A stretch of DNA of 64,000 nt from Bacteroidaceae bacterium (GTDB lineage: Bacteria; Bacteroidota; Bacteroidia; Bacteroidales; Bacteroidaceae), in NCBI GenBank assembly GCA_017453465.1, contig JAFTEV010000033.1:27817-91816 (forward strand), written 5' to 3'. The first letter of the stretch is position 1; every line of letters begins with the position of its first letter. This document shows, piece by piece, positions 39,008 to 49,065 of the stretch. Position numbers and translations under genes: made by a program. The notes beneath the pieces were generated by a model, which saw only the letters and a program-made list of their open reading frames with translations, had not been told where the DNA came from and searched no databases.

Positions 39008-42000
39008 TTACTTCACGAGCACCTTCTCGGTCGTTCCGTCTTGGTGGCGGATGATGTTGATGCCCTTCTTCAGCGCATTCATCAACTGACCGCCCACGCT
39101 GTAGATGGTAGAAGTAACCTTCTCGGTAGCCGTCAGCTCAGTGATGCCCGTAGCATCTTCGCCGACTACGCTGCCCAGCCTGTAAGAGCGAGCTGCCGCA
39201 TCCGTGAAGATGGCATTCTCTACTGCCACCTGACCGCCGCTGTAGCCAGCCGACACCTCTACATCGAGTACCAAGAGGGCCACCTCCGTGTTCAGGAACT
39301 CATTATTCTCAATCGTAGAAATCAATACGCGGTGAGCACCGTTCTCCAGGTCGTTAGAGAGCAGTTCGTGGCCATTGGCGCGAGAAGTCAGGCTCTCGCC
39401 TACCACCTTCACACCCTCAGGCAGCACGATGTCCATCTGGGCACCCACGTAACTCTTCGTGCCAGCGAGCGCGATGACAATCTGCTGCTTCGTGCCAGTG
39501 CCGATGGCGGCGATGGAGATGGCATCCGAGTTGTCTGCTGTAGCAAAGCGAGACTTCGCAGCATTTGTCCATGGCCATGTCGTGTTGCCGCTCATGATGT
39601 AGCTTGCAACACCCGTCACATCGGCAATGGTAACCTCACCATCACCATTCACATCGGCTGCATAGAACTTAGAGTCGGTAGGCTCAACCTTCGTGATGTC
39701 CAGAGCAATGTTGCGGATAGCCGAGTAGTCAGCCACGTTCACCTTGCCGTTGTGGTCAACGTCACCCTTGATGTAGCTCTTGTCCTCTACATCCTTTGCG
39801 TAAGCTTCTACCTCAGCAGCAAGCTCTGCGGCGCGGTCCATGATGGCAGGATATTCCTCCATGTAAACAACCTCCTTGCCGAATGATGTGATATTGCCGT
39901 TTTCATCGACATTTTCAATCTTTACGCCGTTTATGTCACTATAGACATAGAGACTGTTTGCATTGTAGTTGTAGGTTGTCAAACTGGACACATTATTGTG
40001 CAAAGTACTATATGTTCCATTGAGTGCACTTTCATCTGCAACAGTATATTTCTTAATACGCTGTGTATTATATGCCGTAGTCAATGCCGCAGAAACAGCA
40101 GAAACGGTATTAGAAGCATTGTAGAAAGCAAGATCTTGCTCCAAAACAGAGATTTCACCCTTAATGGAAGCCTCATCGTTCATGTCATCCACATCGCCAA
40201 TCTTGTCCGAAGCCTTAAGCTTATAGCCTGCGTTCTTAGCATCAACGTAATCACGCCAATCTTTAATTTGGGCTGTAATCTCAGCATAGCTGTATTCACG
40301 CCAAGTTTTGTAAGTCTTATAAATTGGATTATCATCCTCATCATAACCTTCTATCCTTGGCTTATCTACAACCTGTTGATACTTATACTCAGCTGCTGCT
40401 GCATTCACATCAGCAAGAGCCTTGTCAAGCTTGTCGAGGACATCGGTGAGTTCTGCATACTTGGCATCGTTGATGTCGTATGGTGCTTCGTCTGAAGCAA
40501 TCTCGCTGTCAAGATCAACGTAAACGTCTGCTACCTTAGCTGCCGAAGTCAAGTTGTTCTCAGCATAGAGCAGAACAGTCTTGTCTGCAACCTCCTGATC
40601 GAGTTCTGCCTGAGCAGCCTCAATAGCTGCCTTCAGTTCATCGACAGCACCCTGATATGTATCCACTACAGGTTCGTGGCAGTCTGCCAACTGAGCTGTG
40701 AGGGCATCGTAAGTTGCCTGCAAGCCATCGATGGCAGTCTGTACCTCCTGCTGGGCAGTAGCGGATGCAGCCTTGTCATAGATTTCAGCCAACTCATACT
40801 TGGTCTGGCCAATGGCTTTTTCGAGAGCAAGGTAAGCAGCATGAGTTTCCTCGGCTGTAGCCTTGACTGGCTTCGTCGTGTCGTCATTGCCGTTCTTATC
40901 CTTTTCATAGATTGGCAGACCATCTTCATCAACCTTACCAGTCTGGAAGTCACGAGCAATGGCTGCATTTTCCTTTGTATAGCCAGCGATGATGTCCTTG
41001 TACTTGTCAATCTCTTCGTTCTCAATGTCAGCAGCTGTGGCCTTGTCATAATCGTTCATCAACTGGCCAATTTCAACGCTGATGGCAGCTTCCTCAGCAT
41101 CAATAGCGGATGCTATGATGCCTTCAATAGCATTGAGCTGGGTATTGCAAGCATTCTCAATGATAGCCTTATTGGCACTGGCAATACCTTCACCACTATA
41201 GAAGAGTGCGGCTGCTGTCAAACCGTCAATTTCGCTCTGAACGGTATTGAGACGGTCGTTCAGGTTGTCGTTGTGTTCAACGAGGAGTGAGCCTACATAG
41301 TCTTTAGCGCCAGCAAGAGCATCCTGTACTCCCTGGATGGACTCCCGCATGGCTATGTATGCAAGGTCGTTGGAGTGGTAAGCCTGGTCTTCATCGTATG
41401 CAGCCCAGTATGTACTTGTATGAGTCTCCTTGATGTCCTTGCCATTCTTGTCCTTGCCAACAACTTGTTCATCGTAGTCTCCAATGAAGTTGTTAAGGAT
41501 GTTGTATGCGCTGCTGTAGTTTGCAAACTTTTCACCAGCCTTGATCTTGCCCCATGCGGTAGCGGCCTTGTCAATGCTATTGGCAACGAAGTCTGCATAG
41601 CTGTCTGTATATGCACCAAGAGTGCCGTCTTCAGCAACGAACTTGGCAATGGCTTCAGCCTCCGCAGCAGCAAGTGTGCGGGCTGCACCGATGTTGCTGT
41701 TCCATGCGGTAGCGGCAGCGGTCTCTTTGTCGGCAGCCAGCTTCGTGTCGATAGTTGCAAAGTTGGGCAGGATGGTGTTGTCAAGAATGTATGCAAAGTC
41801 TTGCGCATTCTTGCTCTTTTCAGCATTGTCAAGAATAGTCTTCACGTCGGCCACAGCCGCGCGAGCGTCCTTGTCGCTGTAGCCAAGTGCCTCCTTGATG
41901 GCGGTAACGGCAGCTTCGTACTTCTGGTTGGCGTTTTTGTATTCTGTCTGATAGGTTGCCAGAGCTATCGTGTTCACCTCGTCGGTATAGGTCTTTGCCA

Positions 42001-45000
42001 GGTCTTCCACCTCTGCCTGATACTTCTCGGCTTTCTGCTTCCACGCTTCTTCTGCATCGAAGAGGGCAGGAGCACTGGTTGCCTGATAATCGGCATTGGC
42101 ATCGGCCTTGAGCTGACGAATCATGCCAGCATATTCGTAGATACCGCCCTCGCCTGTGACATCCAGCAATGTCTGTGTTGCAGCTGGGCCAGAGGCATAC
42201 GAGAGCTTGCTCAGCATCGTGATCAGGTTCACGTTCTCTGTGTAAGACTCTGTGAGTGTCTTGTAGGCAGCATCGAAGGCTTCCTTGCGCGTAGCGTTGT
42301 CGGCGGCAATGGCAGCCTTGTAGGTGTCGTTCCAGCCATCGGCAAGTTGCTTGAGTGCATTGTCAATCTTGGTGAGCTGCTCTTCAAGGGCAGACTTGTT
42401 CGTGTCGCTCTTGCCGGCAGCAAAGGCTTCAGATACAGCCTTGTCGTAAGCGGCGAGGTCGTTCTTGGCCTGAGCGAGGGTGGCAATGGCTGCTTCGTGA
42501 GCCGTGGAAGTCTCGTCGTTGGTGATTTCAGCGAAAAGGTCGTCCCATACTTCCAGAGTGCTTTTAGATGCAGCAACCTGGTCGTTGTGAGCCTTTTCGT
42601 TAGCCTCGGCCAGTGCCTTCAGGCCCTCGATGTTTGCCTTCACGTTGGCCAAACGAGACTGGAGAGAACTGAGGTTCTTCACCATGTTCTTGCTGGTGTC
42701 GGTGTATCTCTTGTCGTCCTTCGTAGTACCAGGATAGAGAGGAGCCGTCTTCTTCGAGTCGCCATAGAGTGCTATTCTTGCTTCATTAGCTGCGACCTGG
42801 GCTGACAGGATGCTTTTGTATTCATTCTGATACTTTTGAAGTTCACTATTGAAGAATGTAAGACCTGCACCAGTTGCAACCTCGCTGATACCATTCTTTG
42901 CAGCAGTAATAGCTGCAGGCACATCAGCTGTGGCAATAGCCGCTTCGAAGGTATTGTTTGCAGTAGCATTATCCGATTCATTGGCAGCCAGTGTTCTGAG
43001 CTGGTTGACGGCACTCTTGATGGCCACGATGCGGTTGTCGAAACCAGGAGTTGTTACCTTACCGTCCTTGTCCTTGACATCCTGACGGTCAGCACGAACT
43101 GTTTCAGCTGCAAAAGAGGCTGCGAGGTTGGAGGTGACAGCATTAATCAGACTCTGCTGACCCTGAACTTCAGCATCAAAACGATTGGCAACATCGGGGG
43201 CGAGCAACTGGGCAATGCTCTTGTACTCAACCTCATTGTATGTACCACCATTCAGCAGGGCGGAAACTTCGGCCAGTGCATCTTGAACTGCAACGTTTGC
43301 AAGCTTTTCTGCCTCGTATGCTTCCTTGGCAGAACTTGCATCGTTCAGCAACTTGTTGTAGTCAGCCTCAATGGTCACAAGGTCTTGCTGAATCTCTGCG
43401 AGCAGAGCGATGGCTTCAGCATCGTCGGTAGAGGCCTTTGCATTGCCAATCTTGGTGTTCTGGTCGGTGAGCTTGGTCTGGATGGCGTCCTTCTGGGTGT
43501 TCAGGGCTTTGTACTTCAGGCCGAATGTGTCAGCATCGTAATCGGCGGGCAACTGAATCACACCGACGCGGCGCTCAGCCTCGGCAAGCAGACGTGCTTT
43601 GGCAGCGGCCAGCTGTGCTTCGTTCCATGCTGTTTCGTTGTCTGGATAGAGGGTTTCCAGATTCTTCACTGCTGTAGAGATTGTCGGGTCAATGGTGATG
43701 GCAGTCAGATTCTCTGGAGCCTTCTGGTCAGCTACAATTTGCAGCGAATCTACGTGTGCGCCGTCGCTCAATGTGAGAGCACCATTGAGAGCTGCTTGAA
43801 TCTTGGCAATGGCAGCGGCGTATTCGCTGATGGCTGTAGCGTATGACTTGCCTGTAAGCACATCGTTGCCCGTCTTGCCTTGACCTGCAAGTTCGGCAGC
43901 ATCAATCGTTACATCCTTGTTGGTGGCAGTGCCGACAAGACCTGGAGTAGCAGCCTGAGTCACGTTGCCATTTTTGTCCTTCACCTCTGGTGTGCCGTTG
44001 AGTTTTGCATCGTAGTCAACAAGAGCGGCAGCAATCGCGTTGTAGGCAGTGATAGCGTTTTGGGCGGCAGTCAGATAGTTGTTGATGTCGTTAGTGATGT
44101 CGGCGACGCCCTTGGTTGTCTGCTTGCCATCTTTGTCAAATACACCGGCTTGCAGATTTTCGGTATTGAACTTCTGGGCTGTGCCTGTGCCGTCCACCTT
44201 GTAAGCGGCCTTGGCAGCTTCGGTCAAGGCATCGATGGCGTTCTGGATGGCGGTTTCTGTTGCACCGAAGCGACCGTTTGTAGTGTACTTTCCGTCGGTA
44301 GATTTGAGGTCGTGAACACCAGTCTTGTTCTTGTTGGTCGATGCGTTGTTGAACGCAGTCTGCAGGTCGGCAATGGCTTTCAGTGTAGCGTTGTTGGCGT
44401 CGTATTCGGCAATAGCCTTGTCGGTCTTGGCCTTCAGGTCGCTGATGGCCTTCTCGATAGTTGTCTTGTCGGCCTGATAGTTCTCGCAATATGGGCTTTC
44501 AGCAGCAATGGTGTGAGCCTTGTTGGCTGCATTCACATTGGCCTGCAGGTCGGCAATCTGTTGCTTAATGGCATCGATTGCGCTTTGATAGGCAGCAGTG
44601 ACACTGGGACGATTGTCTTTAGGGAACGCAGCGTTTGGTGTTGATATTGGCGTAGTCACATCAGCAGCCAACTTGTCCGTCAATGTCTTAACATCGGCAC
44701 ATGCAACAATGTAGTTAGAACGGAGGGTTCCTTCGGCAGGATTCTCCACTGTGCCCACCTTGCTTTCGTACTCATTATAAACAGTTGGCAGACCAGCTTC
44801 TGCTTCGGCCAAAGCTGCCAAATACTCAGTCTGTGTGTCTGCATTGGCCTCGCCAGCATCATACTTGGCCTTGTTTTCCTTCTCGACATTTGCGATGTCG
44901 CGTGAATAGTTGTTCAGGTCGCTAAGAGCCTTTACGTAGGTGTCGGTGTAAATGCTACCGTCTGTTGCACCTGCAAGCAGGTCGTAAAGACGGGCGGCTT

Positions 45001-46504
45001 CGTCATTATACTGATTCTTGGCATTAGTGATTTCAGCAACAACGTTTGCATAGGAGAACGCATTGTCACTACCCGACTGGATGGCTTCCTTGGCTGCATC
45101 AATGGCCGCCTTGATGTTGTCTGACTTCTTCTTAATGTTCTCTGAAGAGAATTCCGAAGCAGCAGTGTTTGCCTTGTAAGCGGTTTCAGCAGCAGCCTTG
45201 AAGTCTGCAACCTGTTTTACAACTCCCTCATAAAGTGTCTTGGCTGCAACCTGAGTTTCTTCTGCAGCCTTATTATATACAGTAGTCAGTGTCTGGAGAT
45301 AAGTCTCAAGGGCTGCATGACCGTCAAGAGCTGCGGCGTATGCTTCATAGTTGGCAGCAGCCTTGGCAATGGCTTCACCTGCTGCATCGATGTCAGCAAG
45401 AATGGTATAGTACTGAGTTACATCATCGCCAAAGTTATTGATACGGACTTGAATTTGGGAAGCATCAAGCCCCAACTTCTGTAATGTTTCGTCTTCTGTA
45501 TATACCCCTGCCTTGTTAATTTGAACGGCAAGTTTCTGGGTGAGTTCAGCTTTGAGATTGTCAACAGATTCACGATTCATATTCAGCTGGAAGTCATCGA
45601 AACGTGCCCAGTTTGCTGTTGCTTTGTCAAGCTTAACACCAATCGTAAGCTTCTCATCTGTAACCACAATGTCATTCAAAAAGAAGATGCCTTCTTCTCC
45701 CTTAATTTGAGTTTGCTTGCTACCTGCATACAAATATAGGCCATCACCACCGAAAGCACCTACGACAGCAAGGCTGTAGGTTCCATTAGGCAGAGATACT
45801 TCCTGATGAATGTCAGAATTAGGCAGACCGCCGCTTCCTTGCCATTTTTCACAATAGAGTGTACCAACCTTCTTTGCCAAGCTTGTATTTGCCTGTGCCT
45901 GAAATCCGTTGTTTGTCCAGCCAGTCAAATTATTCTCAAAGCTCGGATTAGTAATGAAAGAGGTTGCATTACCACCATAGTCCAGCAACTTGAAGTTGTC
46001 CCAGATACACCAAAGATTTGTATTAACTGTATTGGCAACACCGATAGTAAGTTTACCATCTGTCACCACTACTCGAATTGGGTCTATTGTGTATTTGCCA
46101 TTAGTGAACGCAGTCGAAGCTTCGTTCATGGAATTTTCGGTACCCGTCCTAAGAGGTATTGTTGCCCTTTGGTCATTTGCGAAGAAATAAGGCAGATTCG
46201 TATTGTCTGAACCATCCTGACGATAGAATCCTTGAGCCGTAAGATAGTAAGTTCCATTTGGAACGGTCAATTCTTGATGAATAAAGAATGTGCGATGGTA
46301 AGCCTCTGCACAATAATTTGTTCCGAGACCACCTCGCCAGCTATTTGGACCAGAATAAGATCCATCATTAGTCCAGCCTGCACCATTCGCTGTCTCAAAA
46401 CTTGGATTAGTGATGAGGCTTGTCACGTCAACCTGTGCCACAGCACTGCCAGTGCTTGCGGCTGTCAAGATTGCCGTCCACAATAAAGGTTTGTTCTTTC
46501 CCAT
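39008..46504 (-). CDS. Giant T9SS-exported surface protein with CBM-like head, helical stalk, dockerin and cohesin-like domain
   Basis: This 2498-residue protein starts with a signal peptide (ending STGSAVAQ). Two related beta domains follow at about 28-170 and 172-315; each opens with ITNPSFE and contains a PNGTY turn, like carbohydrate-binding jelly rolls. From about 320 to 2240 it is almost all helical with many Ala/Lys/Asp repeats, predicted as a very long coiled-coil or helical-bundle stalk. Residues about 2243-2305 form a dockerin (GDVDHNGKVNVADYSAIRN and ADVNGDGEVTIADVTGVASY). A cohesin-like sandwich (about 2330-2440, GAQMDIVLPEGVKVVGE) comes next. The tail GINIIRHQDGTTEKVLVK is a T9SS type A signal. 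It is likely a long adhesin or scaffold on the cell surface. The partner is unknown. Confidence 0.82.
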   Translation of the reverse strand: MGKNKPLLWTAILTAASTGSAVAQVDVTSLITNPSFETANGAGWTNDGSYSGPNSWRGGLGTNYCAEAYHRTFFIHQELTVPNGTYYLTAQGFYRQDGSDNTNLPYFFANDQRATIPLRTGTENSMNEASTAFTNGKYTIDPIRVVVTDGKLTIGVANTVNTNLWCIWDNFKLLDYGGNATSFITNPSFENNLTGWTNNGFQAQANTSLAKKVGTLYCEKWQGSGGLPNSDIHQEVSLPNGTYSLAVVGAFGGDGLYLYAGSKQTQIKGEEGIFFLNDIVVTDEKLTIGVKLDKATANWARFDDFQLNMNRESVDNLKAELTQKLAVQINKAGVYTEDETLQKLGLDASQIQVRINNFGDDVTQYYTILADIDAAGEAIAKAAANYEAYAAALDGHAALETYLQTLTTVYNKAAEETQVAAKTLYEGVVKQVADFKAAAETAYKANTAASEFSSENIKKKSDNIKAAIDAAKEAIQSGSDNAFSYANVVAEITNAKNQYNDEAARLYDLLAGATDGSIYTDTYVKALSDLNNYSRDIANVEKENKAKYDAGEANADTQTEYLAALAEAEAGLPTVYNEYESKVGTVENPAEGTLRSNYIVACADVKTLTDKLAADVTTPISTPNAAFPKDNRPSVTAAYQSAIDAIKQQIADLQANVNAANKAHTIAAESPYCENYQADKTTIEKAISDLKAKTDKAIAEYDANNATLKAIADLQTAFNNASTNKNKTGVHDLKSTDGKYTTNGRFGATETAIQNAIDALTEAAKAAYKVDGTGTAQKFNTENLQAGVFDKDGKQTTKGVADITNDINNYLTAAQNAITAYNAIAAALVDYDAKLNGTPEVKDKNGNVTQAATPGLVGTATNKDVTIDAAELAGQGKTGNDVLTGKSYATAISEYAAAIAKIQAALNGALTLSDGAHVDSLQIVADQKAPENLTAITIDPTISTAVKNLETLYPDNETAWNEAQLAAAKARLLAEAERRVGVIQLPADYDADTFGLKYKALNTQKDAIQTKLTDQNTKIGNAKASTDDAEAIALLAEIQQDLVTIEADYNKLLNDASSAKEAYEAEKLANVAVQDALAEVSALLNGGTYNEVEYKSIAQLLAPDVANRFDAEVQGQQSLINAVTSNLAASFAAETVRADRQDVKDKDGKVTTPGFDNRIVAIKSAVNQLRTLAANESDNATANNTFEAAIATADVPAAITAAKNGISEVATGAGLTFFNSELQKYQNEYKSILSAQVAANEARIALYGDSKKTAPLYPGTTKDDKRYTDTSKNMVKNLSSLQSRLANVKANIEGLKALAEANEKAHNDQVAASKSTLEVWDDLFAEITNDETSTAHEAAIATLAQAKNDLAAYDKAVSEAFAAGKSDTNKSALEEQLTKIDNALKQLADGWNDTYKAAIAADNATRKEAFDAAYKTLTESYTENVNLITMLSKLSYASGPAATQTLLDVTGEGGIYEYAGMIRQLKADANADYQATSAPALFDAEEAWKQKAEKYQAEVEDLAKTYTDEVNTIALATYQTEYKNANQKYEAAVTAIKEALGYSDKDARAAVADVKTILDNAEKSKNAQDFAYILDNTILPNFATIDTKLAADKETAAATAWNSNIGAARTLAAAEAEAIAKFVAEDGTLGAYTDSYADFVANSIDKAATAWGKIKAGEKFANYSSAYNILNNFIGDYDEQVVGKDKNGKDIKETHTSTYWAAYDEDQAYHSNDLAYIAMRESIQGVQDALAGAKDYVGSLLVEHNDNLNDRLNTVQSEIDGLTAAALFYSGEGIASANKAIIENACNTQLNAIEGIIASAIDAEEAAISVEIGQLMNDYDKATAADIENEEIDKYKDIIAGYTKENAAIARDFQTGKVDEDGLPIYEKDKNGNDDTTKPVKATAEETHAAYLALEKAIGQTKYELAEIYDKAASATAQQEVQTAIDGLQATYDALTAQLADCHEPVVDTYQGAVDELKAAIEAAQAELDQEVADKTVLLYAENNLTSAAKVADVYVDLDSEIASDEAPYDINDAKYAELTDVLDKLDKALADVNAAAAEYKYQQVVDKPRIEGYDEDDNPIYKTYKTWREYSYAEITAQIKDWRDYVDAKNAGYKLKASDKIGDVDDMNDEASIKGEISVLEQDLAFYNASNTVSAVSAALTTAYNTQRIKKYTVADESALNGTYSTLHNNVSSLTTYNYNANSLYVYSDINGVKIENVDENGNITSFGKEVVYMEEYPAIMDRAAELAAEVEAYAKDVEDKSYIKGDVDHNGKVNVADYSAIRNIALDITKVEPTDSKFYAADVNGDGEVTIADVTGVASYIMSGNTTWPWTNAAKSRFATADNSDAISIAAIGTGTKQQIVIALAGTKSYVGAQMDIVLPEGVKVVGESLTSRANGHELLSNDLENGAHRVLISTIENNEFLNTEVALLVLDVEVSAGYSGGQVAVENAIFTDAAARSYRLGSVVGEDATGITELTATEKVTSTIYSVGGQLMNALKKGINIIRHQDGTTEKVLVK

Positions 46505-46708: not shown

Positions 46709-46887
46709 AATGTTAATTTTCCATTCATAATCTTAAAGACATATTTCTTCCGCACTTTTCATCGTTTTTTGTTTTAAACGCATCGCGCCACGAACCACGC
46801 TTCCGGGTTTCTTGTCTGCGGTGGGTTAAGGGAGACACAAGTGGGGAACCTTGCCGTACAGTCCGGCGGTATGATGGGTTTCTATTG

Positions 46888-46895
46888 CAAAGGTA
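46888..46895 (-). promoter_or_regulatory. Weak -7 element upstream of the giant gene
   Basis: The minus strand reads TACCTTTG, matching the -7 consensus, but no TTTG lies 19-21 bases upstream. If used, the leader would be about 375 bases. It may give only basal expression. Confidence 0.4.
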
Positions 46896-46945: not shown

Positions 46946-46971
46946 CCCATGAAAACGACCGTTTTTTGCGG
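46946..46971 (+). repeat. Recombination-site candidate A (left, inverted)
   Basis: A 26-bp near-palindrome with core AAAACGACCGTTTT: half sites CCATGAAAACG and, on the other strand, CCGCAAAAAACG, around an asymmetric AC centre. The reverse complement matches sites B and B' at 25 of 26 positions. It lies about 440 bases upstream of the giant gene. Confidence 0.7.
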
Positions 46972-47008
46972 CTGCTGTGATGGTAGCAGTATGCTACCTG
47001 TCGCAGCG

Positions 47009-47086
47009 GCATAGGCAATGCGTCGCGCTCGCGTAGGCAATCATTAGCAAACAAATGCCTACATGAGCGCGACGCATTGCCTACGC
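47009..47086. repeat. Palindromic element, copy 2 (GCGTAGGCAATGCGTCGCGC type)
   Basis: Arms 47009-47040 and 47055-47086 pair at 28 of 32 positions around a 14-base loop. The left arm matches that of copy 1 (30131-30162) at 30 of 32 positions. It lies inside the proposed invertible segment. Confidence 0.8.
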
Positions 47087-47113
47087 GAGCCAGGAAGTAT
47101 TGGTAAGAAAAAG

Positions 47114-47157
47114 CGTAGATTGAAGATTCTTTCTTACGAAAGAATCTTCAATCTACG
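47114..47157. terminator. Perfect 20-bp hairpin downstream of the recombinase
   Basis: Arms 47114-47133 and 47138-47157 are perfect complements with a TTAC loop, 65 bases after the recombinase stop. No T run follows. Twelve bases further lies a separate perfect palindrome, CGCGCACGTGCGCG (47169-47182). The hairpin could stop read-through toward the giant gene. Confidence 0.65.
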
Positions 47158-47221
47158 ATGTAGTGTCTCGCGCACGTGCGCGTACATACTAATTATTATA
47201 AGGAGAGAGGACGGCCTGTGG

Positions 47222-47854
47222 CTATGAGGGAGCTTCCAGGCAGGAGTCTGGCTTAGGGTCGATGTAGCCGTGGATGTAACGCTGCATGGTCTTGCTGTTG
47301 ACCTTGCAGTCACGGGCTATCTGGGCAATGGAGACTTTCTCTTTGAGGCGGCTGACAATGTAGTCGTGCTTCTTGTAGAGCTTGAGGGAGGTTTGTGGAC
47401 TTTTCCGACGGGGACGGCCCAGGACTGCGCCTTCTGCCTTCTTGCGGGCAAGAGCCTCTTTGGTGCGCTGCGAAATGAGGTTGCGCTCTATCTCTGCCGA
47501 GAGGCTGAAGGCGAAGGCGAGTACCTTGCTCTGGAGGTCGTCGCCCAGGCGGTAGTTGTCCTTGATGGTCCAGACGGAGCAGTTCTTGCTCATGCAGAGA
47601 CTCAGAATCTCCATAATCATGAGCATGTTGCGCCCCAGGCGCGAGAGTTCGGCGCAGATGATGACATCGCCGCTCTTGACATGTTTCAGGAGGGTGCCGA
47701 GCCTGCGCTTGCGGTAGGTAACGGTTCCGCTGACTTGTTCTTCAATCCAGCCGTCAATGTGGAGGTGGTGGCACTGACAGTATTTGATGATTTCGTAACG
47801 CTGGTTTTCCACTGTCTGCTTGTCTGTGCTCACTCGTATGTAGCCATATAGCAT
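47222..47854 (-). CDS. Small serine recombinase (DNA invertase/resolvase family, Mpi-like)
   Basis: The 210-residue protein has the catalytic serine S9 in YGYIRVSTDKQTVENQRYEI, the conserved arginines in CAELSRLGRNMLMIMEIL, the helix E region AFAFSLSAEIERNLISQRTKEAL and a C-terminal helix-turn-helix (VSIAQIARDCKVNSKTMQRYI). Length and layout match small serine invertases such as Hin, Gin and the Bacteroides master invertase Mpi. These act at near-palindromic sites with an asymmetric two-base centre. Such sites flank this gene in inverted orientation, so it probably inverts its own segment. Action at distant sites is also possible. Confidence 0.93.
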   Translation of the reverse strand: MLYGYIRVSTDKQTVENQRYEIIKYCQCHHLHIDGWIEEQVSGTVTYRKRRLGTLLKHVKSGDVIICAELSRLGRNMLMIMEILSLCMSKNCSVWTIKDNYRLGDDLQSKVLAFAFSLSAEIERNLISQRTKEALARKKAEGAVLGRPRRKSPQTSLKLYKKHDYIVSRLKEKVSIAQIARDCKVNSKTMQRYIHGYIDPKPDSCLEAPS

Positions 47855-47995
47855 GGTAATTTCTATTTTTTAAAATTAGGTTTTATTGTTTTTAGTTAGT
47901 GTTGAGAAATAGTGTTTGACATGTCGGTTTTTACATTATAAAAGGGTTGTTTTTTCGATTTCGTTCACTTTTTTTCAAAAAAAACACAAAAATAT

Positions 47996-48026
47996 TTTGC
48001 GGATTAAATAAAAATATGGATATTTG
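47996..48026 (+). promoter_or_regulatory. Outward promoter at the edge of the invertible segment
   Basis: TTTG (47996-47999) and GATATTTG (48019-48026, one mismatch to TAnnTTTG) are 19 bases apart. It fires toward site B, away from the giant gene. In the inverted state it would fire toward the giant gene. The 17 bases TTTGCGCCCAAATCTGT recur at the tsaE promoter. Confidence 0.6.
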
Positions 48027-48057
48027 CGCCCAAATCTGTTTTCCCGAATGAATTTGA

Positions 48058-48083
48058 CCACAAAAAACGGTCGTTTTCATGGG
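48058..48083 (-). repeat. Recombination-site candidate B
   Basis: The 26-bp site is in the opposite orientation to site A, with 25 of 26 matches, and has a GT centre on the plus strand. It lies about 30 bases beyond the outward promoter. Together with A it encloses the recombinase gene. Confidence 0.7.
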
Positions 48084-48123
48084 GCAGAAGAAAGACTCAA
48101 CGTCTGTTCCTAAATGAAATCGA

Positions 48124-48149
48124 CCACAAAAAACGGTCGTTTTCATGGG
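48124..48149 (-). repeat. Recombination-site candidate B' (second copy)
   Basis: It is identical to site B over 28 bases (48122-48149 versus 48056-48083), in the same orientation and 66 bp away. Recombination B x B' would delete 66 bp; A x B' would invert a slightly longer segment. Confidence 0.7.
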
Positions 48150-48245: not shown

Positions 48246-48277
48246 CAAAGTTACGGTTTTTCCCGCAAACTGCCAAA
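48246..48277 (-). promoter_or_regulatory. Probable recombinase promoter, outside the invertible segment
   Basis: Minus strand: TTTG (48274-48277) and TAACTTTG (48246-48253), 20 bases apart. Transcription would run across B' and B into the recombinase gene, with a leader of about 385 bases. Inversion would uncouple the gene from this promoter. Confidence 0.6.
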
Positions 48278-48372: not shown

Positions 48373-48545
48373 GTAACTATTCAGCGAATCGCCCTTGGCG
48401 ATGAATTATTGGAAACGAATATGAATAATATGAATAATAATGGGTCTCATCAAGAATATTTATGTCCTAAAATGGAAAAATTATTCATATTAGTCATATT
48501 CGTTTCCCTATAAAAGCCGCACAGCGACATTCGCTGAATAGTTAC
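48373..48545. repeat. Nested 173-bp palindrome
   Basis: Perfect 17-bp outer arms (48373-48389 and 48529-48545) enclose a second pair of 27-base arms (48411-48437 and 48481-48507, 25 matches) made of ATGAATA words. A small hairpin ATCGCC-CTT-GGCGAT lies between the left arms. There is no coding frame. It looks like a compound palindromic insertion or a structured RNA. Confidence 0.7.
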
Positions 48546-48629: not shown

Positions 48630-48637
48630 TATCTTTG
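48630..48637 (+). promoter_or_regulatory. tsaE -7 element
   Basis: TATCTTTG is followed by GCGCCCAAATCTGT and then the ATG at 48652, so the transcript would have only a few untranslated bases. The -33 region lies in TTTTAAC word repeats and lacks a clear TTTG. Confidence 0.6.
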
Positions 48638-48651
48638 CGCCCAAATCTGTA

Positions 48652-49065
48652 ATGATGGAAATTAGGATTGCTACACTGAATGATTTGGAGTCTGCCGCCC
48701 AGCTGTTTGTTGGCGCAATGGCGGGGCGGACGGTTTTTGCCTTCTACGGCAAGATGGGGGCGGGAAAGACGACGTTTATCCGCGCCGTGTGTGAAGGGCT
48801 GGGGGTGAAGGATGTCATCAATTCGCCTACGTTTGCCATTGTGAATGAGTACCTGAGTGGCGGGGGTGAACCTATCTACCACTTCGACTTCTACCGAATC
48901 AAGCGGCTGCAGGAGGTGCTTGACATTGGGTATGAGGACTATGTGTATAGCGGTGCTCTGTGCCTGATGGAGTGGCCTGAACTCATAGAAAACCTGCTCC
49001 CCGATGACGCTGTAAGGGTTGTCATCGAAGAGCAGGCTGACGGTAGCAGGGTGGTGAGGTTTTAG
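48652..49065 (+). CDS. tsaE: tRNA t6A biosynthesis ATPase TsaE
   Basis: The 137-residue protein has the Walker A motif FYGKMGAGKTTFIRAVCEGLG, the TsaE signature VINSPTFAIVNEYL and IYHFDFYRI, and the conserved LMEWPELIENLLP. TsaE works with TsaB and TsaD to make threonylcarbamoyladenosine at position 37 of ANN-decoding tRNAs. The gene stands alone behind its own promoter and overlaps the convergent downstream gene by 4 bases at the stop codons. Confidence 0.96.
   Translation: MMEIRIATLNDLESAAQLFVGAMAGRTVFAFYGKMGAGKTTFIRAVCEGLGVKDVINSPTFAIVNEYLSGGGEPIYHFDFYRIKRLQEVLDIGYEDYVYSGALCLMEWPELIENLLPDDAVRVVIEEQADGSRVVRF

What the first reader, a model, noticed from the sequence alone, without database searches (positions are those of the whole stretch)
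46946..48149. Self-contained invertible segment predicted upstream of a giant surface-protein gene
A serine invertase gene lies between inverted copies of a 26-bp near-palindrome (site A 46946; sites B 48058 and B' 48124; 25/26 identity). The core AAAACG-AC-CGTTTT has dyad half sites around a non-palindromic two-base centre, which is the architecture of crossover sites for small serine recombinases. The enclosed segment would invert as a unit of about 1.1 kb. Its left end abuts the leader of the 2498-residue T9SS-exported protein, so phase variation of that surface system is the natural reading. I know of no described system that couples such a switch to cohesin/dockerin giant proteins.
Basis: partly seen in the sequence, partly recalled or inferred. 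Interest (0 to 1): 0.85.

Follow-up and report, generated by a model that had tools for sequence, protein, structure and literature searches.

The report
Self-flipping DNA switch beside surface gene
A gut-type bacterium carries a 1.1-kb DNA segment that encodes its own flipping enzyme between matching mirror-image sites, in front of a giant exported-protein gene, so it probably turns that surface protein on and off; flipping itself has not been seen.

Summary
A 210-aa serine recombinase (47222-47854, -) lies between inverted 26-bp sites A (46946) and B/B' (48058, 48124), 25/26 identical. It passes NCBI's cut-off for the Mpi family of DNA invertases. The core AAAACG-AC-CGTTTT shares its ACG-NN-CGT layout with the published B. 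fragilis Mpi repeat. AAACGNNCGTTT occurs at four places in the 3.16-Mb assembly, three of them here. Two distant relatives carry the same half-sites, inverted, around their own invertase genes beside SusC-type genes; one has the same AC centre. A same-genus genome has an invertase between other inverted repeats beside a related large ORF, and its contig ends exactly at one repeat. A self-contained Mpi-type switch is well supported; control of the giant gene is inferred. The strongest promoter lies outside the segment and points through it to the giant gene; a terminator in the segment blocks that path only in the present orientation. An inner promoter candidate that would face the gene after inversion is no better than chance (0.35 of shuffles). 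No inverted state was observed.

The parts
46946..46971 (+). Site A, 26-bp crossover site, centre dinucleotide AC at 46958-46959
48058..48083 (-). Site B, inverted copy of A (25/26)
48124..48149 (-). Site B', second inverted copy, 66 bp from B
47222..47854 (-). Mpi-family serine DNA invertase, 210 aa, Ser9 in the N-terminal IRVSTDKQ motif (catalytic role recalled)
47114..47157 (-). Terminator-like hairpin behind the invertase: perfect 20-bp stem, 4-nt loop, T-rich tail on the minus strand; faces the giant gene only in the present orientation
   Evidence: sequence only; the scan found 5 terminator-like sites against 2.9 expected, this one with by far the longest stem
47009..47086 (.). Long hairpin (31-nt arms, 90%; -70 kcal/mol for 46991-47100 folded as minus-strand RNA) between terminator and site A; role unknown
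48246..48277 (-). P-out: TTTG-N20-TAACTTTG, consensus Bacteroidota promoter outside the segment, facing into it (toward invertase and giant gene)
   Evidence: 0 of 1000 shuffles score as high
47996..48026 (+). P-in: TTTG-N19-GATATTTG, weak promoter candidate inside the segment, now facing away from the giant gene; would face it after inversion
   Evidence: (0.35 of shuffles score as high); 17-nt identity with the region before tsaE
39008..46504 (-). Probable target: 2498-aa giant protein with signal-peptide-like start and type I dockerin at 2246-2303
46885..46892 (-). Lone -7-like TACCTTTG between site A and the giant gene, without a -33 box; a possible inversion-independent promoter (position read by eye, approximate)
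   Evidence: best score on that side 7.0, 0.433 of shuffles as high

Best explanation
This is a self-contained Mpi-family DNA inversion switch. The invertase binds its own sites (ACG half-sites around a non-palindromic AC centre), pairs A with B or B', and flips the 1.1-kb segment that carries its own gene. The segment lies between a strong fixed promoter (P-out) and the codirectional giant dockerin-protein gene. In the present orientation P-out transcribes the invertase and stops at the terminator behind it, so the giant gene gets little or nothing from P-out (OFF). After inversion the terminator no longer faces that way, P-out reads the invertase only in antisense, transcription can run on to the giant gene, and P-in, if real, also faces it (ON). 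Shown by sequence: genes, sites, layout, site class, relatives with a similar layout. Inferred: inversion, the ON/OFF assignment, termination, antisense effect, and the giant gene as the target.
For: Invertase family NF009949, 306.7 bits against a cut-off of 272. Near-private inverted sites. An inverted AACG-NN-CGTT pair with matching centre within 1000 bp on either side flanks the invertase in 3 of 165 distinct invertase loci including the window, and in 0 of 165 for each of 11 permuted half-sites; L286 shares the AC centre. Published Mpi repeat ARACGTTCGTN (PMC8375218 passage). Invertases between inverted repeats beside SusC-type genes (L065, L085, L200/L282; L285, L286; Plug domain in the one gene tested from each of L065, L085, L285, L286) and beside a relative of the giant in the same genus (L175), whose contig begins at base 1 of the repeat and whose site is otherwise absent from that 88%-complete genome except for one 1-mismatch copy. 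P-out 9.5 of 9.5, 0 of 1000 shuffles. Terminator between P-out and the giant gene only in the present state, none found in both simulated inverted states.
Against: No read, PCR or second strain shows the inverted state. P-in is no better than chance, and the promoter scan of the whole 2.4-kb region gave 9 hits against 6.5 expected. A lone TACCTTTG on the giant side of A could drive the gene in both states. In G022 the invertase reads away from the giant relative and the best promoter there also faces away from it, so the valve layout is not conserved. In the general scan 11 of 165 loci had an inverted repeat at score 14 or more across the gene but 12 had a direct repeat in the control, two of these scoring 22 and 30, as high as the window's 23. 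In L065, L085 and L274 the repeats run over similar coding sequence of the flanking genes, which gene relatedness alone could give. Single AACG-NN-CGTT sites are not enriched (7 loci upstream, 3 downstream, against up to 6 and 4 for permuted halves). Only 2 of 165 invertases have a match to the giant protein nearby; 64 have a restriction-modification match. 441 bp separate site A from the giant ATG.
Confidence: 0.55

Rival explanations
1. Classical invertible promoter: P-in inside the segment drives the giant gene after inversion (as in Hin or the capsule promoters), and P-out merely transcribes the invertase.
For: P-in has both TTTG boxes with 19-nt spacing, faces no nearby gene now and faces the giant gene in both simulated inverted states; 17 nt at it match the stretch before tsaE; L286 has a strong outward promoter inside its segment facing the SusC-type gene (9.5, 0.002 of shuffles).
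Against: 0.35 of shuffles score as high as P-in; it has GA where the consensus has TA. L285's inner candidate is also at chance (8.5, 0.34 of shuffles; none on its other side).
Confidence: 0.2
2. The segment inverts, but the giant gene has its own promoter between A and its ATG and is unaffected; inversion regulates mainly the invertase itself.
For: TACCTTTG near 46885-46892 and 441 bp of leader lie outside the segment; the giant homologue of G036 has a weak promoter candidate (7.5) 183 bp before its ATG and no invertase relative at E 1e-30 in that genome.
Against: Best promoter score on that side is only 7.0, reached by 0.433 of shuffles; several relatives have such segments beside surface-protein genes.
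Confidence: 0.12
3. A fossil or locked switch that no longer inverts.
For: Only one orientation is assembled.
Against: Open invertase frame, 25/26 identical sites, identical 14-nt cores.
Confidence: 0.06
4. A small transposon with terminal inverted repeats, not a switch.
For: A single recombinase gene between terminal inverted repeats.
Against: Sites near-private in the own assembly; the family is invertase, not transposase; a DNA search of 119 relatives and the own genome showed no second copy of the segment beyond invertase-gene similarity and short repeats, but scored only 2 first-look candidates per genome.
Confidence: 0.02

Closest known systems
Mpi of Bacteroides fragilis (master serine DNA invertase; repeat ARACGTTCGTN)
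   Same: Same protein family by NCBI's model; same ACG-NN-CGT site layout.
   Different: Mpi inverts 13 regions (PMC4747536 passage); here sites are local and near-private, the centre is AC not TT, and the gene lies inside its own segment.
Hin / H segment of Salmonella (recalled)
   Same: Serine invertase inside a ~1-kb segment with 26-bp sites of 12+2+12 layout, next to a surface gene.
   Different: Different family and host; no enhancer looked for; strongest promoter lies outside the segment.
Clostridioides difficile flagellar switch (PMC7446863, abstract)
   Same: Orientation of an invertible element acts after transcription initiation, by termination in the leader.
   Different: There RecV and Rho; here a serine invertase and an intrinsic-type terminator, untested.
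SusC/SusD inversion loci of B. fragilis (Tsr0667; PMC4747536 passage)
   Same: DNA inversion controls outer-membrane surface proteins in Bacteroidales.
   Different: There one invertase acts on three gene clusters and nine other regions; here a serine invertase with only local sites. L285 and L286 are nearer cousins found here.

Membership tests
Mpi-family serine DNA invertase (NF009949) | Score over the curated cut-off | tested here: met
   306.7 bits against 272
Mpi-family serine DNA invertase (NF009949) | Recognition site with ACG-NN-CGT core | tested here: met
   AAAACG-AC-CGTTTT against ARACGTTCGTN (PMC8375218 passage); pairs in L285 and L286. By sequence only; other self-flanked relatives (L065, L085, L175, L282) do not show such a pair
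Mpi-family serine DNA invertase (NF009949) | Acts as master on many distant sites (B. fragilis Mpi) | tested here: not met
   Only one further AAACGNNCGTTT place in the 3.16-Mb, 85%-complete assembly
Self-contained inversion switch (Hin type) | Invertase gene between inverted crossover sites | tested here: met
Self-contained inversion switch (Hin type) | Outward promoter inside the segment that reaches the target in one orientation | tested here: inconclusive
   P-in, 0.35 of shuffles as good
Self-contained inversion switch (Hin type) | Both orientations exist in the population | not testable with these tools
   No reads; one assembly. Only indirect: G022 contig ends at the repeat
Orientation-dependent termination switch | Fixed promoter upstream, terminator effective in one orientation | tested here: inconclusive
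   Met by sequence: P-out and 20-bp terminator; function untested
T9SS cargo (giant protein) | T9SS C-terminal sorting domain | tested here: inconclusive
   No Pfam or NCBIfam hit; C-terminus ...KKGINIIRHQDGTTEKVLVK resembles type A tails (recalled)
Cohesin/dockerin system | Dockerin in the target and cohesins in the genome | tested here: met
   Dockerin E 1e-9; 6 cohesin matches, 5 over cut-off; binding untested

The most novel reading that the evidence does not exclude
A self-extinguishing transcription valve: one fixed promoter feeds either the invertase (with a terminator shielding the giant gene) or, after inversion, the giant dockerin protein through an antisense-read invertase, so that expression of the surface protein and of the flipping enzyme are mutually exclusive, and B/B' give two different ON leaders. 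It would be the first phase-variable dockerin giant in Bacteroidota known to me (searches in an open-access library listed none).
Probability: 0.3. Interest if true: 0.7.

Novelty: new member of a known kind. Interest (0 to 1): 0.5.

Why it matters
It ties the Mpi family, known for flipping capsule promoters from afar, to self-contained switches at other surface genes, and adds large dockerin-bearing exported proteins as a probable target. It gives a crossover site with the ACG-NN-CGT layout and a varying centre, which predicts which sites can recombine. If true, display of this protein is a population-level bet, which matters when judging adhesion, phage escape or fibre attachment from bulk genomes.

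Tried and rejected
First inverted-repeat scan turned six loci (L015, L028, L031, L049, L055, L083) the wrong way because their matched stretch held a stop; redone with tblastn positions. I first took P-in for a good promoter by eye and thought that SusC-type switches always carry an outward promoter on the invertase's 5' side; shuffles and L286, whose strong promoter is on the 3' side, did not support this. Transposon reading rejected mainly on the near-private sites. A peptide start inside the sites (MKTTVFC) was considered as an N-terminus-exchange switch, but the resulting ORFs (about 70 and 21 codons, by eye) look non-coding. Viral contigs: 27 relatives found, no exact copy of the 23-nt site. 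The tree is the quick one, the careful search did not finish; 6 of 165 rows were dropped as short, and L268 is not among the drawn self-contained rows; the two giant-linked invertases do not come out as sisters, but the window's branch is marked long. Of the 11 inverted-repeat loci I dropped L178, L030 and L227 as low-scoring (14-15).

Full report
Observation. The window holds a 210-aa serine recombinase gene (47222-47854, -) between site A (46946-46971, +) and two inverted copies B (48058-48083) and B' (48124-48149), each 25/26 identical to A in inverted register. The core AAAACGACCGTTTT is far from chance in the window (7 matches with up to 2 mismatches, 0.32 expected). In the own assembly (3,160,306 bases, 108 contigs, 85% complete) AAACGNNCGTTT lies at four places, three of them here, and AAAACGACCGTTTT with at most one mismatch at four, three here. 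So it is not an abundant dispersed repeat.

The enzyme. Pfam: Resolvase. NCBIfam: 'master DNA invertase Mpi family', 306.7 bits over a cut-off of 272. PHROGs: DNA invertase. Among solved structures the best match by sequence is a DNA-invertase (4m6f, E 1.3e-12). The IRVSTDKQ motif with Ser9 is present (catalytic role recalled).

The sites. A passage of PMC8375218 gives the B. fragilis Mpi repeats as ARACGTTCGTN, i.e. ACG-TT-CGT; the site here is ACG-AC-CGT. Among 165 distinct invertase loci including the window (119 with at least 400 bp on both sides), an inverted AACG-NN-CGTT pair with matching centre flanks the invertase in three: the window, L263/L285 (48% identical; TGCACTAAAAAACGAGCGTTTT) and L268/L286 (about 65% over the matched part; CAAAACGACCGTTT, the same AC centre). 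The same count is 0 of 165 for each of the 11 other orders of AACG (sequences). Single sites are not enriched: 7 loci upstream and 3 downstream, against up to 6 and 4 for permuted halves. The matched pairs are my strongest evidence that the 26-bp repeats are this enzyme's crossover sites.

Relatives and their settings. In one search, 64 of 165 invertases have, within 1500 bp, a match to a restriction-modification protein (reference L176: Pfam Eco57I and TaqI_C; PglX-like match far below NCBI's cut-off), 9 a SusC/SusD match, 2 a match to the giant protein (the window and G022), 56 none of these, 28 none but with short flanks; 6 were dropped as short. Eight loci I take to lie between real inverted repeats: the window, L175, L065, L085, L282, L263/L285, L268/L286, L274. 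Their neighbours are surface genes: two divergent SusC-type genes in L065, L085, L200/L282 and L285, one SusC-type gene in L286 (the contig starts on the other side), a SusC-type match in L274, and the giant relative in L175. Plug domains were confirmed for one gene each of L065, L085, L285, L286. The plain count is less impressive: at score 14 or more, 11 of 165 loci have an inverted repeat across the gene and 12 have a direct repeat, the control. The inverted ones taken as real score 22 to 124, plus L175 at 15 (kept because its site is private in its genome); two direct controls reach 22 and 30. In L065, L085 and L274 the repeats run over similar coding sequence, so relatedness of the flanking genes could explain them without recombination. 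The cases with intergenic dyad sites, L285 and L286, are the firm ones. The quick tree scatters the self-contained loci and does not join the two giant-linked ones.

Same-genus case. G022:C34 (L175, 4969 bp) has a 208-aa invertase of the same family (324 bits) between two copies of ATTGCCCGTTTTCCG, inverted, at 1-15 and 1401-1415, the latter 111 bp before the ATG of a large ORF (1147 aa to the contig end; matches the giant protein; no Pfam hit over cut-off). The contig begins at the first base of the repeat, which is where an assembly graph forks if both orientations are present; this is indirect. There the invertase's 5' end faces the giant relative; in the window its 3' end does. The sites and genes differ, so this is not proof of inversion.

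How the window's switch may work. Scanning with the Bacteroidota consensus (TTTG, 18-22 nt, TAnnTTTG; the -7 box as cited in PMC4747536; the -33 box recalled), the strongest site is P-out (48277-48246, -), outside the segment and pointing into it, 9.5 of 9.5 points, 0 of 1000 dinucleotide shuffles of its region. Over the whole 2.4 kb the scan is noisy: 9 hits at 7.5 or more against 6.5 expected. P-in (47996-48026, +), inside and now facing away from the giant gene, scores 8.5, but 0.35 of shuffles do as well. No good site lies on the minus strand between the invertase stop and the giant ATG (7.0 on each side of A; 0.449 and 0.433 of shuffles). Behind the invertase stands a perfect 20-bp stem with a T-rich tail (-30.2 kcal/mol). 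In the simulated states this terminator lies between P-out and the giant gene only at present; after AxB or AxB' inversion no stem of at least 8 pairs with a T-rich tail was found there, and P-in faces the giant gene. B' adds a second possible junction: AxB' leaves two sites between P-in and the gene, AxB one. In B. fragilis EPS the number of such repeats between promoter and gene is reported to be inversely correlated with transcription (PMC4747536 passage). I therefore favour a valve: present state OFF for the giant gene and ON for the invertase, inverted state the reverse. Termination after initiation as the output of an inversion is known from C. difficile (abstract of PMC7446863).

The target. 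The giant ORF has a dockerin, a signal-peptide-like start and a C-terminus resembling T9SS tails (motif recalled; no model hit). The own genome holds six cohesin matches, five over cut-off. The best match to its N-terminal 500 residues in the 60 other genomes is in G036, whose ORF has nearly the same first 24 residues and whose genome has no invertase relative at E 1e-30. In 101 genomes searched with the invertase, 8 had a relative at E 1e-20 or better, 3 of them in the genus including the own one, of which G043's lies by a restriction-modification gene, so the coupling is rare.

Novelty. Searches for dockerin with phase variation and Bacteroid* (1 paper, an adhesion review seen only in the listing), type IX secretion with DNA inversion (3 papers, listing only), and (none) listed no such switch; the library is open-access only. 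Mpi-type enzymes, self-contained switches and inversion at surface genes are all known, so I file this as a new member of a known kind with a new probable target. What is missing is any direct sign of inversion.

Noticed in passing
L015-L094 and others (e.g. L176:3426-8093): 64 of 165 relatives of this invertase have a restriction-modification match (Eco57I/TaqI_C reference) within 1500 bp, the same-strand match often starting within 30 bp behind the gene and often with an inverted partial copy 0.4-3.3 kb on. 25 of the 80 loci end 11-174 bp behind the matched gene, as expected if these specificity parts invert in nature.
   Followed up: partly
48373-48545: Dispersed hairpin repeat (MITE-like); a 98% copy of 145 bp on contig C16 and diverged copies in several same-genus genomes.
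   Followed up: partly
48023-48039 and 48634-48650: 17 identical nt TTTGCGCCCAAATCTGT at P-in and just before tsaE; L286 has a similar TTTTGTGCCCAAATTG at its promoter.
   Followed up: partly
48652-49065: In roughly 18 of 29 other same-genus loci (counted by eye) tsaE directly follows the end of another ORF ending like ...MQSKRRK (PorX-like, recalled); here the switch and giant gene lie upstream instead.
   Followed up: no
G000 contigs C44, C23, C31, C9 (L289-L293): Cohesin domains, two in tandem on C44 and on C23, in a Bacteroidales genome with dockerin proteins.
   Followed up: no
47009-47086: Very stable long hairpin with GC-rich 31-nt arms between terminator and site A; role and distribution not studied.
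   Followed up: no
L286:112-212 and 1110-1205: Besides the core sites, 48-bp and 40-bp near-perfect inverted repeats flank this switch, the outer one running to the SusC-type start codon.
   Followed up: no
46946-46971, 48058-48149: Each site contains ATGAAAACGACCGTTTTTTG (MKTTVF...), reminiscent of the signal-peptide starts covered by the repeats of L065, L085 and L282; may be an evolutionary trace.
   Followed up: no
L212 (G000:C96:5116-5571): The only other Resolvase-domain gene found in the own assembly (214 aa); no AAACGNNCGTTT site on that contig.
   Followed up: partly
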